Below are positions 31,130 through 38,067 of a DNA stretch of 64,000 nt, piece after piece; position 1 is the first letter of the stretch, and each line of letters begins with the position of its first letter. The notes under the pieces are model-generated. The model was not told the origin of the DNA and did not search any database. It saw only the letters and a list, made by a program, of their open reading frames with translations. A program made the position numbers and the translations under genes. This DNA is from Cinnamomum chago (lineage: Eukaryota > Streptophyta > Magnoliopsida > Laurales > Lauraceae): contig CP142458.1 in the NCBI GenBank assembly GCA_038049695.1, positions 44,175,501 through 44,239,500 of the forward strand, given 5' to 3'.

Positions 31130-31138
31130 ATTTCTTAA

Positions 31139-31166
31139 GAGTCCTGCTACCTGCACACTCCATTTT
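31139..31166 (+). repeat. MULE left terminal inverted repeat
   Basis: About 28 bp, pairs with 38031-38058 with one mismatch. Inside it, the phrase CCATTTTGATCTCCACACT recurs as a direct repeat at about 31160 and 31211. Confidence 0.92.
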
Positions 31167-31618
31167 GATCTCCACACTGTGCAACTCTATACACAGTGAG
31201 AAGCTTCTCCCATTTTGATCTCCACACTCTGCACGTTCCCAAAAATGCCCATGCTTTCTCATAGAGGTTTTCTCCCCGCACGCTGTCGTCTTCCCTCCCA
31301 TTTCACTGTCTGAACTGCCGTTTCACTGCAGCCTCCACGTCCAAGGCGAGATCAAAAAGCTCCCCAACCTTCTCCTCCACGTGAACATAGGATTTCCAAC
31401 CGCCTGGGCCATCGCCTTCTTCTTACAAGTGCACACATTACTGTGAATCGTCACTTTCCAACCTATGTGAGTGATTTTGCTGCCTTTTGCTTGTTTAGAA
31501 ATGATTGTATTCGTATTTTAAGATCAAAGACTTGGAATTTTCATATTTCCCCCCCCCCCCCCCTCTTGCGCCATTGTCTCCTTCGTCCAGCCACTGGGAT
31601 AGTTGCAGACGATGAGTC

Positions 31619-31815
31619 CGTTCGGCTCTGTGCATCCGAACGAACACGGAACGTTCGGACTTCACGAGCCGTGGAAACATAATATGCTCGGCAATGTAGG
31701 TCCGAGCAAAATATATGTGCTCGGCAGTGTGGGTCCGAGCAAAATACATTTGCTCGGCATTGTAACGCCGACAACTCAATAACCACACGGATACTCAGGG
31801 CCGAACGGACTGTGA
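31619..31815. repeat. Left array of 33-bp palindromic units (six)
   Basis: Unit starts at 31619, 31652, 31685, 31718, 31751 and 31784, exactly 33 bp apart. The core is a short hairpin such as TGCTCGG…CCGAGCA (31685-31708 and 31718-31741) or GTTCGG…CCGAAC. The last unit ends CAGGGCCGAACGGA, closely matching the end of the right array in the same direction. It ends about 45 bp before the start codon of the mobile domain gene. Confidence 0.93.
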
Positions 31816-31860
31816 CTCAGTGGTAATCTATGTACTGATGTTTATTTTTTTTTAAGATAT

Positions 31861-33878
31861 ATGGATAGGCCGAGTACCTCTAGGATTCGACCGACAGCGT
31901 CGAACCGGAGACTACGTCAGAGGGTGGTGGCTTCTTCCTCCGAGAGTGACGAAGAAGCGGTTGAAGAACAGCCCGAACCCCAAGTTGAGCCCGAACCCCA
32001 AGTTGAGCCCGAACAGCCAGAAGTACGTGCACAACGCCCCCCTGTTGCTCATAGGACTGGAGAGATTCCCGGGGGCCCTACAAGTTTGAGCCTACTGCCT
32101 AGTTTTCGGACTCATATTGCTGCAAGTATTTGGCAGCAGCAGGTTTGTGAATATTCTTGTTGAATAGGTTTTAAATATTTATTACCTTTGCTAATTTATG
32201 TTTTATTTCGTTTTGCAGGAGAGACCGCCACTCAAATGCATAAGCCATGGCCAAAAAATCTGTGATTGGGCATGGAATTCAGAAGGAAGGCAAAATACCA
32301 TTTTTGCACGTCTCATTGGCCGTTCAGGGCTGGCTCCATTGGTGGCGACGTCTTATCGTTCCATCAACAAGAACATGGTGTCAGCCTTTGTGGAAAGATG
32401 GCAGCCTGAGACTAACACATTTCACATGCCTTTCGGTGAAATGACGATTACACTTGATGACGTCGGCACCATTCTAGGGATCCCGGTCACTGGGAGATCC
32501 GTATCAGTTGAGCAGCTGTCTTTTGAGCGATCAAAGACACTTGTAGAGCATGGTCTCGGGGTCACATCCCAGCAGGCACACGAAGAGTTAGTAGGTGTGC
32601 GGGGCTCTTCGGTTAGATTGGAGTGGCTGAGGGACCTATATGGAGACGTGACTGATGCGGATCCAGAAGATCGCATTAGGTGTGCAGCTAGAGCATATCT
32701 ACTATATATATTGGGCTGTACACTCTTCACAGACAAGACTGGCACGAGGGTCCCAGTGCCTTATTTGAGGCTGCTGGTGAACTTTGATGAGGCACGCACG
32801 TATGCTTGGGGAGCTGCTGCACTTGCGCATTTATACCGACAGTTAGGGTTTGCTACTCGTAATGGAGTCAGGCAGATTGCAGGATATTTGACTCTACTAG
32901 AGGCATGGATTTACGAGCATTTCCACATATGTAGGCCTCACCAAAACCGCGCATACACAGAAGATTTACCGCGGGTGCATCGTTGGGTGCCAAGAAGAGA
33001 GTCTGGGGACCAAATGTCCAACCTGCAGTCATTACGAGAGGCACTTGATGACCTTGGTGCCCATGAGGTAATGTCTTTTATATGTTATAAATGCATTACG
33101 TTTTCCGAAAATAGTATCGTATACTTTAACTAATGGTTTTGTTGACTAATGTTGCAGGTGGTGTGGGACCCCTATCGAGAGCATAGGGCAGATCACCCCT
33201 TTAACGAGGTTGCGTTTTATACTGGCTGTCTTAAGTGCATGGACATCGTTGAACCATATCATCCTGATCGGGTGCTTAGGCAATTTGGTAGGGTTCAACG
33301 CATTCCCCCCACTCCACTAGCTCCACAGCGCGCCACTAGGGGTCCCACCGCAAATCAATATCGGATCGCCTACAATTACTTGGATCAAATATGGGAGAGA
33401 TGGCATAACCACATCCTGTCTCCGATGGAGCGCGGTGCACCTGTGGGGCACCCATGGGACTGTGCACCCAATTATATGGAATGGTTCCGCCGAGTGTCCC
33501 ACCCTATTATTCAAAACCCTGAACATCGCTCCACGTTTAATCCGCGTAATCAGGATTCTCAGGGTAGCTCTTCTATTGACCCACGATTGGTAGGATGCCT
33601 GGTAACTTAACTATTTTATTAAGTATAACCAACTGAACAAACTTACTAATTTGTGCTTTATGTGATCAATGTGGCAGCGCATCGTGAATGCCCAAAGTAT
33701 TATTCAGCCGATTCTAAGGAGAGGGCATAGTCTGAGTATCCGAGATCCTGATGCCTTGTACGTGGCCCTTGAGGACGTAAACAAGGTACTGGATGGAGCC
33801 GATCCAGCAGATCTTGTTCATCGACCGCCACGGAGCGAGACACGCACTTACAGCCGCAGGGGGAGACGTGGGGGATAG
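31861..33878 (+). CDS. Plant mobile domain (PMD/MAIN-like) protein gene inside the MULE
   Basis: Four exons join in frame: 31861-32142, 32219-33067, 33158-33589 and 33678-33878, all with GT-AG introns, giving 587 codons. The N-terminus is basic then acidic and low in complexity (SSSESDEEAVEEQPEPQVEP). From about residue 95 a plant mobile domain is evident: VSAFVERWQPETNTFHMPFG, EMTITLDDVGTILGIPVTGR, a central YLLYILGCTLFTDKTG, then WIYEHFHICRP and, in exon 3, VWDPYREHRADHPFNEV. The C-terminus is Arg-rich (RSETRTYSRRGRRGG). Host relatives MAIN and MAIL1 work in gene expression and transposon silencing with a PP7-type phosphatase; the role of transposon-borne copies is unknown. No stops or frame breaks. 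It converges on the transposase gene. Start chosen as the first ATG of the long exon. Confidence 0.88.
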
Positions 33879-34186
33879 GATGTGGACTAAGCATTTGAAC
33901 TTCTTTTTTGTTTCCATATAATTGTTCTTGTTGGAAAACATTGAAAGATTGTAATTTTTTTGTGTAACAAAGAGGTTACAAACAGTTTTGTAAGTAATAT
34001 GATGTGTAACAAAGGTCTGTACATATTTTTTCCATGGCCTATTTATGGATATGATTTTTTAACGTTGCATATTGATTTGAAGTATGTTTGATAGTCTCTT
34101 TTTTATACAGGACCGAATTTAAAAAACAAAGAGGTTACAAACAGTTTTGTAAGAAAACATTGAAAGTTTGGACGCACTTACAGTTA

Positions 34187-34310
34187 TGTTCGGCCCTGTG
34201 ATGCCGAACAAATTGTGTTTGCTCGGCCGCGTGAGACCGAACAACTCAAGTTGGTTCGGCTACATAGGGCCGAACAATATAAATTTGTTCGGCCCTGTGT
34301 GGCCGAACGG
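34187..34310. repeat. Central array of 33-bp palindromic units (four)
   Basis: Unit starts at 34187, 34220, 34253 and 34286, again exactly 33 bp apart. Cores read TGTTCGGC…GCCGAACA (34187-34210), TGCTCGG…CCGAACA, GGTTCGGC…GCCGAACA and TGTTCGGCC…GGCCGAAC. It lies between the 3' ends of the two convergent genes, where it could also act in transcript ends, though no terminator function is shown. Confidence 0.93.
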
Positions 34311-34505
34311 ACATGGGAGAAGCTGAGTATTAATATTTTCCTAAAAAATGGTTTGTGGAGATACTTTCCCAATGCACCATGAAGATATATAGAATATTCT
34401 TATATTTAAAATAAAAAGAAACAGATGCAAAATTACAACAAGGTTCATGTCACCGAGTTTTTCAAAAAAATTGGAACATTGATACATCCTTATAAAACAT
34501 AACAT

Positions 34506-37500
34506 TCATTCTATATCAATTGTTTCGCATGTCGCAACTGATGGACTGATAATATCTCTGAAATGTTGGATCCGAGATTGATAAGCCGTATCCCATCCAT
34601 CTACAGAAGGGTGATGGTGACGATTCCAGTTAGTAGCAATGGGTGGAATCGGATGACCTTGTAAGAGGAAAACCTACATATGATAATGAGTTCAAGTTAG
34701 TCACGTTATTTCAGAGCAAAATAAGATCGGAGAAACTATGCAATGAACTTGGTATCACCTGAACAAAGTGGTTTTGATTGACAAAACCGATTGCGATCTC
34801 CCACCTAGCAGCTAGAGGAATAGGCACAGATCGAAGAGGAAGAAAAGTCAGACATTGCTCCATTGACAAATGGTATAGAACCACGTTATAGTGTGAGGCA
34901 ATTAGATGTCCCATGTCCGGCATCGTCATCCACCGATCATGTGGAGGGCAATCCTCTTCGTAGGATATGATATGGAGAAGTTCATCAACCCTTTGATGTG
35001 AACCATATAATTGTCTGTAGTGTTCGGCATGAGTCACCAACTCTCTAGAAAGATCTTTTCGTACCTGTTGCCACGAGTCCTCACCAAGTCCCATCAACCC
35101 TGCAATTGCTGTAAAGCCACAATTGCCATCCGCCTTGACATCTTTTACATGATGGATATAAGGCCTTAAACCAGCTGGGAGTGTGTTAATATAAGAAACA
35201 GGCTTTAGCGATCGGGTGCGAATGACCTTTTGCTTAGGTATATGCTTCTTCACGGGCACCAAAGAGGCCCCACTACTGACAATGGTCTCTTCCATCTTCA
35301 AGACAGGAGAGTAACTGTCTTGAGCTGATTCAAAATATTCAAAGGAAGACGGCTCACGTTTAGTGGAGTTATGTAATTTCAATTTTGGGCGCCCCTTACA
35401 CTGTGACTTCGAAGCTGGCTCGGCAAGCGAGGTCGTCTCAGGCTTTGCAAGCTCCCTAAGCTTATCCAAGATTTGTAACTTCTTTCTCGAGTCGTAGCCC
35501 CTGAACTGTTCAACAATTAAATCTATCTCTGGCATGCAATCCAAATTCAAACACGAGTCCTTGACAGAAGCGGTAGATAACAAGTCAAGCTTGCGCCAAT
35601 GCATATGCGTGCAATCTAGAGGAATAGGGCGACCAGCACTTATGTATTCTGCAATTTCATGAGCACAAGGTAGACCATGTGTGCATCGAAGTACACAGCC
35701 ACAAGCATCTCTATCGATACCAAATGACGAGGCTCGTTTCGTCTCGGCTAAGATTTTCTCTAATGCACTTATAGAAATATTCCCACGAAGTTCTTTGAAT
35801 TCGGAAGGCCTAAAGTTGTGTTGCACAACCGTCTTACTTTTTTCAAATGATGATTTTATATCTGTATGTTGCAGCAGCAATAAGTTGTCAATCTTTGTCC
35901 AAGAGTCTTCGAAAGTCCCCTGGCTTGATCCAAGCTGCCGCTTCAGCTGTGCATGTGAACTCTCCACCCTGTTTGTAGTAGTGTTCCCAAGATGCATGAC
36001 CTTATCCGTCCATGCAGCCACAAATCTGTCCTTGTATGCATCTAACCAAGACGACCTCACATACTGAAGTGCCGTCGGATAGGTAATGAACTCCTTGACA
36101 AACAAGCTGAATTGCAGATTGTAATGCTCCTCTGTGGATGAGGAGACCAACATGTTCCAGCTCATTATAAACCGGTCCCACTTTTCTTTCGTCTCAAACA
36201 ACTTCTTGCATTTAGCCAAAATATTTCTGTTGATATGCCATCTGCATAAAAGATGTTTGGCGTCTGGAAAAACAATAGATATGGCGTTCATTAAAGCCAT
36301 CTCTCTGTCAGTGACGATAACGCTAGGAAGAACACCATCGCCAATAACTTTGCGCAAAATACCCAATGCCCATGAGTAACAGTCTTCACGTTCATTCTGG
36401 AGATATACAATGCATACCGAAAAAGTCTTCTCTGTGGATGTAACCCCAACAATCTCCAATAAGGGCATTCGGTACCGATTGGTCTTGTAGGTGCAGTCCA
36501 TTATCAACACATGAGGAAATGCACGCAAGAGGTCTAAGCTGGTAGGGTGTGTGAAAAACAAGTCAAGGACAGTATCTGATGCAGGACAATTCCTATGCCA
36601 CTCAATGTAACCATGATCCGCCAATAATTTCAACAGATGCTGCATTTGACTTCGTCCAGCCCTCTCCGCAACTTTATGCCTTTGACGTGCATTGTAAATG
36701 GTCTTCATTGTACTAACATTTAACTCATTTTTCCGTTTTAGTGTCACCAAGATCTCTTTTGGCCGAACCATATTCTTGGACATGTCTACTAGCAATGATG
36801 TTTCCTCCTTTGTTAATCTCCCTGCAAATGAGTGCCCTTCTAGAAAGTCTGCAGCAGGATGATTATGCACACCACACACTACATGCAACATCCATTCCTC
36901 ATTTGAGCCAACCACTTTGCCTTGTAACGTGAATGGGCATCCACATTTTTTTGAACCAGTCTGTTTCAATCTCTTCCCAACGGTCCCATCTTTAGTTATC
37001 CTCGTGTCTCTATAAGACCCATTTCTCTCACACCCAAGGGTCAGCCTTGGTTTTTTATTCCTCCTGTTGGGCGCTGCTGATGTCTTAATCACAATAATGA
37101 AACCATTTCTCCTCCCAACCTCACGAGCCCAATTAATTAAGGCTTCTCGGCTTGTGAATATCTGCACATTTTACAAAATAAAATTATATTGAAACAAGTG
37201 ACTACATCAATTTTTCCATCAAATGATTCATCTCAATTAATTACCTCTTCAGTGATAAACTCATTACTATAGTCGACCACACATTCCGACCCAACCTTGC
37301 TGCACTCAGTAGGCGCATGAAACTGCGATGGAACCAATTTTGTTAGAATAATCTACATGACAAAATTACACGGCTGTGGTAAGATGGCAGCTTGTTCGGC
37401 CATGTATTGCCGCGAAAATTGCCTCTGTTCGGCCATACATGGCCGCGAAAATGGGACATGTTCGGCCCTACAGTACCAAACTTAGGGCATATTCTCGGCC

Positions 37501-37681
37501 ATTCAGGTCCGACCGAAGGGCATGTACTCGGCCCTGCATGGCCGACAATAGGCCCTTCGGTCGGATATTCAGGGCCGAACGGTTCGTCTCCACCATTAAT
37601 CCAACTCTCGATGAATATGCTTACCTCGACGCTGCTAGAATGATCGGGAGTGAGTGGATGCTTGTCCTTTCGCTCGTCCAT
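34506..37681 (-). CDS. MULE transposase with FAR1-type N-terminus, SWIM finger and C-terminal OTU domain
   Basis: Four minus-strand exons join in frame: 37625-37681 (ATG at 37679-37681), 37245-37352, 34759-37161 and 34506-34673 (TGA at 34506-34508), about 911 codons. Domains in order: a FAR1-like DNA-binding region (SREALINWAREVGRRNGF, then KKCGCPF and CGVHNHPA); a MULE DDE transposase core (LIMDCTYKTNRY, VIVTDREMALMNA, CRWHINRNI, TNRVESSHAQLK); a SWIM finger (CVLRCTHGLPCAHEI); and an OTU cysteine-protease-like domain (KADGNCGFTAIA with the Asp-Gly-Asn-Cys motif, and NHFVQV as the likely His). The third exon would stop at 34711 if unspliced; a good intron (34674-34758) instead adds 55 residues. 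Intron 1 holds the right 33-bp array. No breaks. It would cut and insert the element in the nucleus; what the OTU domain does is unknown. Confidence 0.9.
37393..37590. repeat. Right array of 33-bp palindromic units (six), in transposase intron 1
   Basis: Unit starts at 37393, 37426, 37459, 37492, 37525 and 37558, exactly 33 bp apart. The first units read TGTTCGGCCAT…GCCGCGAAAA, later ones CTCGGCC…GGCCGAC. The last ends CAGGGCCGAACGGTT, like the last unit of the left array. The whole array falls within the intron at 37353-37624. Confidence 0.93.
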
Positions 37682-38030
37682 TGATCAAGAATGCTCGCAA
37701 ACCGAGTTTCAACTTTGAATGCAATCGATAATGAGTTGCAGCCAATGCTGCGAGGCTTTAAACCGAGAGAGAAGAGAGAAGATGAACGTTGGGTGCCAAG
37801 TACAGAGCGTTAAATGTAGGAAGATGATAGAAACCTTCACTTCATTACTCGTGCAAACTGAAGAGGATGGAATACAGTGACGACAGCCCGGATGACAACA
37901 TTTCCAACATTTTCGTTTGGAGGGAAAACGCAGTGTGTATTCAGTAGTGTGGGAGGAGTGCAGTTCATACGTTTTGGTCATTTTGCAAGTGGGTATTTTA
38001 GTCACAATCTCTTTGCAGTGTATGTTGAGT

Positions 38031-38058
38031 AAAATGGAGTGTGCAGGTAGCAGCACTC
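38031..38058 (-). repeat. MULE right terminal inverted repeat
   Basis: Complement begins GAGTGCTGCTACCTGCACAC. Followed directly by the target duplication ATTTCTTAA at 38059-38067. Confidence 0.92.
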
Positions 38059-38067
38059 ATTTCTTAA

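What the first reader, a model, noticed from the sequence alone, without database searches (positions are those of the whole stretch)
31619..37590. Three exactly phased arrays of 33-bp palindromic units inside one Mutator-like transposon
Sixteen units (6 + 4 + 6) start at positions that are exactly 33 bp apart within each array. Each carries a TGTTCGGCC…GGCCGAACA-type palindrome of about 24 bp plus a 9-bp spacer. The arrays lie 45 bp before the mobile domain start codon, between the two gene 3' ends, and inside transposase intron 1. The last units of the left and right arrays match in direct orientation, so they are not extended terminal inverted repeats. Thirty-three bases is about three helix turns, so all sites would face one side of the DNA. 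Inference: binding sites for an element-encoded protein (transposase FAR1-like domain or the mobile domain protein), a self-regulatory operator, a looping device, or a source of hairpin RNA. I know of no described MULE with this layout.
Basis: partly seen in the sequence, partly recalled or inferred. Interest (0 to 1): 0.88.

Follow-up and report, generated by a model that had tools for sequence, protein, structure and literature searches.

The report
Transposon protein-binding arrays for anti-silencing
A jumping gene in a plant genome carries three evenly spaced arrays of a mirror-image DNA site that related copies also keep, and it makes a protein whose predicted shape matches VANC21, a known transposon protein that binds such arrays and undoes silencing, so it is probably an unrecognised anti-silencing system.

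The parts
31130..31138 (.). left 9-bp target-site duplication ATTTCTTAA
   Evidence: identical to 38059-38067
31139..31184 (+). left terminal inverted repeat (46 bp, 83%)
31467..31856 (+). probable 5'UTR (leader) intron of the PMD gene holding array 1
   Evidence: donor GTGAGTGATTT and acceptor before the ATG conserved in 8 of 8 copies; splicing inferred
31619..31816 (.). array 1: six 33-bp units, CGG-N10-CCG dyads
   Evidence: same array in 8 of 8 copies read
31861..32142 (+). PMD gene exon 1
   Evidence: intact 591-aa reading; Pfam PMD 2.2e-76
32219..33067 (+). PMD gene exon 2
33158..33601 (+). PMD gene exon 3
   Evidence: a donor after 33589 also gives an open reading
33678..33878 (+). PMD gene exon 4 with stop
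34187..34318 (.). array 2: four 33-bp units between the two gene 3' ends
   Evidence: subfamily B has 7 units (9 in L028) of different sequence here
34711..37161 (-). transposase exon 3 (FAR1 domain, MULE DDE domain, C-terminal OTU-like fold)
   Evidence: Pfam; Foldseek ISCth4 transposase and OTU matches
37245..37322 (-). transposase exon 2
   Evidence: similar residues in P0001 and P0019
37323..37624 (-). transposase intron 1
37393..37590 (.). array 3: six 33-bp units inside transposase intron 1
   Evidence: 29 of 30 copies examined have 3 or more sites in register
37625..37681 (-). transposase exon 1 with ATG
38013..38058 (-). right terminal inverted repeat
38059..38067 (.). right target-site duplication ATTTCTTAA

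Best explanation
The arrays are cis targets of the element's own PMD protein, in a VANC-like, sequence-specific anti-silencing system. SHOWN: dyad sites at 33-bp pitch are kept at fixed non-coding places in several families of this element, and the PMD protein has the predicted fold of VANC21. INFERRED: the PMD protein, probably a dimer (one subunit per CGG half-site), fills each array nearly continuously (28-bp dyad, about 5 bp free between neighbours). From the leader intron, the transposase intron and the 3'-3' intergenic region it counteracts DNA methylation and other silencing marks over the element. This lets both genes be expressed and restricts the effect to elements that carry the arrays.
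Against: No binding, methylation or expression data. VANC21 motifs are 9 bp, same orientation and not dyadic, so the binding mode would differ. VANC motifs change between related families, whereas here the TCGG...CCGA core is kept across about 50% PMD divergence. In L049 and L050 no intergenic array was seen, also with up to 4 mismatches. Sequence search does not link PMD to VANC21 itself, the window protein alone matches DUF1985 only at 0.049, and a shared fold does not prove shared function. Host PMD proteins MAIN/MAIL1 promote silencing (PMC5418596, PMC7156037, passages). The transposase also has a FAR1-type domain and could be the binder.
Confidence: 0.67

Rival explanations
1. The arrays are binding sites for the transposase (FAR1 zinc-finger domain), used to assemble the transposition complex or to autoregulate, as TnpA does at Spm ends.
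For: The transposase has a FAR1 match (5e-6, 27.6 bits, just under the 28.1 cut-off; 15 of 18 relatives). Arrays 1 and 3 lie 480 and 477 bp from the two ends. MURA and TnpA lower methylation of their elements (PMC10398659 passage).
Against: Array 2 lies mid-element between gene 3' ends. No CGG-N10-CCG site occurs in the inverted repeats or elsewhere in the window outside the arrays. The element has no CACGCGC, the FHY3/FAR1 motif recalled from memory. The VANC21-DNA fold match is in the PMD protein.
Confidence: 0.17
2. The arrays bind a host factor (transcription or chromatin protein) that the element exploits as promoter, enhancer or insulator.
For: Arrays 1 and 3 lie in first introns near both gene starts (array 1's intron is inferred); core is under strong constraint.
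Against: Strict sites are grouped: 44 of the first 50 listed (of 1463) lie within 8 kb of another, and 3 of 3 clusters read are PMD-MULEs; a host factor would be expected to have targets spread outside one kind of element. Only a small sample was read, so this is weak.
Confidence: 0.1
3. The arrays act as RNA: hairpins that end transcription or feed small RNAs.
For: Array 2 folds far better than shuffles (z -10.3), a 99-nt part of array 1 z -3.8, a 148-nt part of array 3 z about -2.5.
Against: Hairpin potential follows from any palindrome. Centres and outer arms do not keep pairing (3-9 of 12 pairs per unit). RNA hairpins do not explain a conserved 33-bp pitch; a source of small RNAs would be expected to hurt the element.
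Confidence: 0.04
4. A neutral minisatellite captured by the element, or repeat-encoded peptides (33 bp = 11 codons).
For: Frames through arrays are partly open; tandem duplication occurs (L028). In two of the six frames the third codon position is the most variable, as in coding DNA (worked out).
Against: Cores identical while spacers are near random. Array 2 turned over in B with the same pitch. Introns hold arrays 3 and probably 1. The two frames with a variable third position carry 8 and 5 stops in 16 units; in the frame starting at position 3, wobble positions 5 and 20 are 16/16 and 15/16 fixed. An array-3 frame query found no protein relative.
Confidence: 0.02

Closest known systems
VANDAL21/VANDAL6 VANC anti-silencing system (Arabidopsis MULEs; Hosaka 2017 PMC5735166, Results read; Sasaki 2023 PMC10398659, passages; Fu 2013 not held, known through these)
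   Same: MULE with a second gene; tandem arrays of a short motif in introns and intergenic DNA; arrays gain and lose units; element-encoded protein of the same predicted fold (9LNJ).
   Different: Here the protein is a PMD, not a DUF1985/DUF287 VANC; site is a dyad at strict 33-bp pitch instead of 9-bp direct motifs; core is stable across about 50% PMD divergence; element has clear inverted ends and a FAR1-MULE-OTU transposase; no VANC21 or VANC6 motif is present.
PMD-carrying MULEs of the MUDR/MUDRAVI2/MDR groups (Dupeyron 2019 PMC6446971, Table 1 passage; Ikeda 2017 PMC5418596, passages)
   Same: PMD gene antisense to a MULE transposase, 9-bp TSD, inverted ends of the listed order of length.
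   Different: No arrays or binding function are mentioned in the passages read ('tandem repeat' and 'subterminal' occur 0 times in PMC6446971); transposase here also has FAR1 and OTU parts. I did not place the element in one of these groups.
Spm/En TnpA with subterminal motifs (motif details recalled; demethylation from a PMC10398659 passage)
   Same: Element-encoded DNA-binding protein, many repeated sites, activation with loss of methylation.
   Different: CACTA element, subterminal motifs, unrelated protein (recalled).
MAIN/MAIL1 host PMD proteins (PMC7156037, PMC5418596, passages)
   Same: Same domain.
   Different: Host proteins that support TE silencing; whether they bind DNA is left open there, a 'DOWN' promoter motif is reported.

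Membership tests
Mutator-like element (MULE) | MULE DDE transposase | tested here: met
   PF10551 1.5e-27; ISCth4 fold match from a low-confidence model
Mutator-like element (MULE) | about 9-bp target duplication and inverted ends | tested here: met
   9/9 TSD, 46-bp TIR
PMD-carrying MULE | PMD gene antisense to transposase | tested here: met
   PF10536 2.2e-76 on + strand, transposase on - strand
VANDAL/VANC anti-silencing family | DUF1985-class VANC protein | tested here: not met
   window protein hits DUF1985 only at 0.049, 14 bits against a cut-off of 35.1; it is a PMD
VANDAL/VANC anti-silencing family | VANC21 DNA-binding fold | tested here: met
VANDAL/VANC anti-silencing family | tandem arrays of one motif in non-coding parts of the element, gaining and losing units | tested here: met
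VANDAL/VANC anti-silencing family | YAGTATTAY or AGTTGTCC/AC motifs | tested here: not met
   0 matches on either strand of the element
VANDAL/VANC anti-silencing family | protein binds the motif and removes DNA methylation | not testable with these tools
   needs EMSA/ChIP and bisulfite data

The most novel reading that the evidence does not exclude
PMD and VANC are one superfamily of sequence-specific DNA-binding proteins. PMD-MULEs carry a widespread, older anti-silencing system with its own dyad-array code, and the host silencing proteins MAIN/MAIL1 use the same fold, so silencing and anti-silencing sides of the plant arms race share one DNA-reading domain.
Probability: 0.5. Interest if true: 0.94.

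Novelty: new variant of a known kind. Interest (0 to 1): 0.86.

Why it matters
PMD is described as a domain of unknown function found only in angiosperms (PMC8616336 passage), and whether MAIN/MAIL1 complexes touch chromatin or a motif is stated as open (PMC7156037 passage). A concrete candidate DNA site, repeated over a thousand times in one genome and attached to its own PMD gene, makes that directly testable. If right, sequence-specific anti-silencing is not a peculiarity of VANDALs but may be a general strategy of PMD-MULEs, and it offers a new sequence-addressable epigenome tool.

Tried and rejected
Relatives in viral contigs and genome contigs: none, as expected for a plant element. Array-3 reading frame as a protein query: nothing. 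Sequence profile of PMD against PDB: no VANC21. A first genome pattern had the wrong spacing and its 7 hits mean nothing here. CpG retention as evidence of low methylation: arrays have CpG o/e 1.1-1.5 against 0.5-0.8 elsewhere, but the conserved core itself contains the CpGs, so it cannot separate selection from hypomethylation. Coding repeat, helical one-face and RNA-hairpin ideas: see rivals. Off-pitch controls (10-bp spacer), a 9-base-centre control, a search with P0125 and with the left end did not complete, so the pitch rests (gaps up to 120 bp: 56 of 66 are 33 bp in 8 sequences, one mismatch allowed; 130 of 132 are 33 or 66 in 30 loci) and on the reversed patterns. Counter-examples: L025 and L031 show no array 2; their match to the element stops before it. 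L021 has 2 array-2 sites in register, its match ending beside them; L009 has a 1-bp shift in array 3. L049 and L050 show no intergenic array, L047 single sites near the leader and between the genes. Of 4 isolated strict sites fetched, 1 lies by a transposase fragment and 3 have no PMD or transposase within 3 kb, though remnants of 33-bp arrays are visible.

Full report
OBSERVATION. The three arrays are as described: 16 units, exact 33-bp steps, no indels. Narrower: CGG-N10-CCG is nearly invariant, the rest of the 24-bp palindrome is not. Wider: weaker conserved letters at T32 of the preceding unit, T1, Y3, T4 and A21, A24, A26 fall symmetrically about the same axis. Among 33 possible axes, axis 12.5 scores 9.4 against 1.6 for the next in the window (16 units) and 8.0 against 2.7 in subfamily B (20 units taken from two copies). 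All 15 CGG-N10-CCG matches of the window lie in the arrays, where about 2 are expected by shuffling the whole window.

THE ELEMENT. It runs from 31139 to 38058 with a perfect 9-bp duplication ATTTCTTAA and 46-bp inverted ends at 83%. Both genes read without an internal stop: a 591-aa PMD protein on + and an 861-aa transposase on -. Pfam: PMD 2.2e-76; MULE 1.5e-27; FAR1 5e-6 (27.6 bits, just under its cut-off of 28.1). The low-confidence transposase model (pLDDT 56.8) has a DDE part like the ISCth4 transposase and a better modelled C-terminus with an OTU protease fold. Array 1 is probably inside a leader intron. Array 3 is inside transposase intron 1; exons 2 and 3 run on in P0001, a transcript-derived protein, and in P0019. 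Array 2 is between the two 3' ends.

COPIES. The genome (1.06 Gb, 14 contigs, unnamed) holds at least 55 scored copies of transposase exon 3, mainly in two subfamilies, A (97-100%) and B (88-92%), with one at 94%. I examined the 30 for which flanks were given (16 A including the window copy, 14 B). With a criterion of 3 or more CGG-N10-CCG sites in one 33-bp register, array 2 is present in 27 of 30 and array 3 in 29 of 30; the exceptions are listed under Tried and rejected. Array 1 was fetched for 8 copies (4 A, 4 B) and is present in 8 of 8 with 5 to 7 intact sites: 6 units in A, 7 in B.

SELECTION ON CORE AND PITCH. In array 3, A and B consensus units differ at 0 of 36 core positions, 18 of 60 inner, 26 of 48 arm and 25 of 54 spacer positions (core vs spacer Fisher 1.5e-7). 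L009 is partly out of register in this comparison and was left in; it raises the within-A difference counts of that call. Synonymous divergence of the transposase between A and B is 0.27-0.28 in the two pairs computed. Array 2 of B shows no evident shared spacer or centre with that of A (7 units, 5 with intact core, of the type CTCGGCGTCTCAGGGCCGA; 9 units, 6 intact, in L028, by an in-register duplication of two units) but has the same pitch and core. So unit sequence turns over by tandem duplication while site and pitch stay.

DEEPER FAMILIES. A search with P0001 gave a third family. In L046 (transposase 65%, PMD 49-55% identical) five units (four intact) precede the PMD start, five lie between the genes, and about six lie 5' of transposase exon 3, with one gap of 31 bp. 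L047, a second copy, is decayed: two intact units 5' of the transposase and single sites at the other two places. L048, L049 and L050, fetched only because strict dyads cluster there, all encode PMD and transposase relatives (3 of 3). L048 has all three arrays. L049 and L050 have leader and intron-side arrays but no intergenic one that I could see. L050 (transposase about 50% in its main match) keeps seven leader and seven intron-side units, most 33 bp apart, several decayed in the CGG/CCG core. Gaps in these and the A/B sequences: 56 of 66 are 33 bp.

GENOME-WIDE. TGTTCGG-N10-CCGAACA: 1463 places, reversed pattern 2. CCGAACA-N9-TGTTCGG, which means neighbours at exactly 33 bp: 1040, reversed 7. 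Of the first 50 places listed, 44 lie within 8 kb of another, 37 within 400 bp, 28 at an exact multiple of 33; they form 16 clusters, of which 5 span 5.1-5.6 kb with inner gaps near 3.0 and 2.3 kb or about 5 kb, as the array layout predicts; one spans 10.6 kb and the rest are smaller or single. The listing covers part of one contig, so this is a sample, not a census.

MECHANISM. VANC21 binds clustered motifs in introns, intergenic and terminal non-coding DNA of VANDAL21 and VANC expression causes loss of methylation (PMC5735166, Results read in full). The present element has a protein of that predicted fold and arrays in the same kinds of places, so I conclude that the PMD protein most likely binds the dyads and protects its family from silencing. 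The dimer and the near-continuous filling of arrays are inferences from the dyad and the 28-of-33-bp footprint. The transposase FAR1 domain is the main rival binder.

HOST AND SPREAD. Among the closest proteins outside the genome are those of Cinnamomum (P0121, 81% over 62% of the PMD query; P0019, 72% over 66% of the transposase query), so a magnoliid host is likely (inference). PMD and transposase relatives share 13 contig lengths between the best 120 rows and (read by eye), for instance Camellia contigs 479423 and 883744. For chromosome-size contigs this says little, but for such short ones it suggests that the gene pair occurs beyond this genome; their DNA could not be read here.

Noticed in passing
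34711-35200 (transposase C-terminus): The transposase ends in an OTU deubiquitinase-like fold (DUBA match E 2.3e-4) with an ADGNCGF motif; 4 of the 120 listed plant relatives are named OTU domain-containing protein. Its role in transposition is unknown.
   Followed up: partly
34253-34309: Array-2 units 3 and 4 are close to reverse complements of each other and would form a 24-bp RNA hairpin between two converging genes.
   Followed up: partly
31619 and 37581: Arrays 1 and 3 are 480 and 477 bp from the two element ends; not checked in other families.
   Followed up: no
L016, L019, L020, L037, array 3: Several core losses in individual copies are CG to TG or CA changes, as expected if methylated copies decay; not counted.
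   Followed up: no
G000:C1:4104868, C1:7553992, C1:25985421: An identical CCGAACAAACCGAGTTTGTTCGG recurs at these three listed places away from other listed sites and may belong to another repeat.
   Followed up: no
1-30000 and 43000-64000: Several of the longest reading frames in the rest of the window look like copia- and gypsy-type retrotransposon proteins (read by eye; no family search).
   Followed up: no
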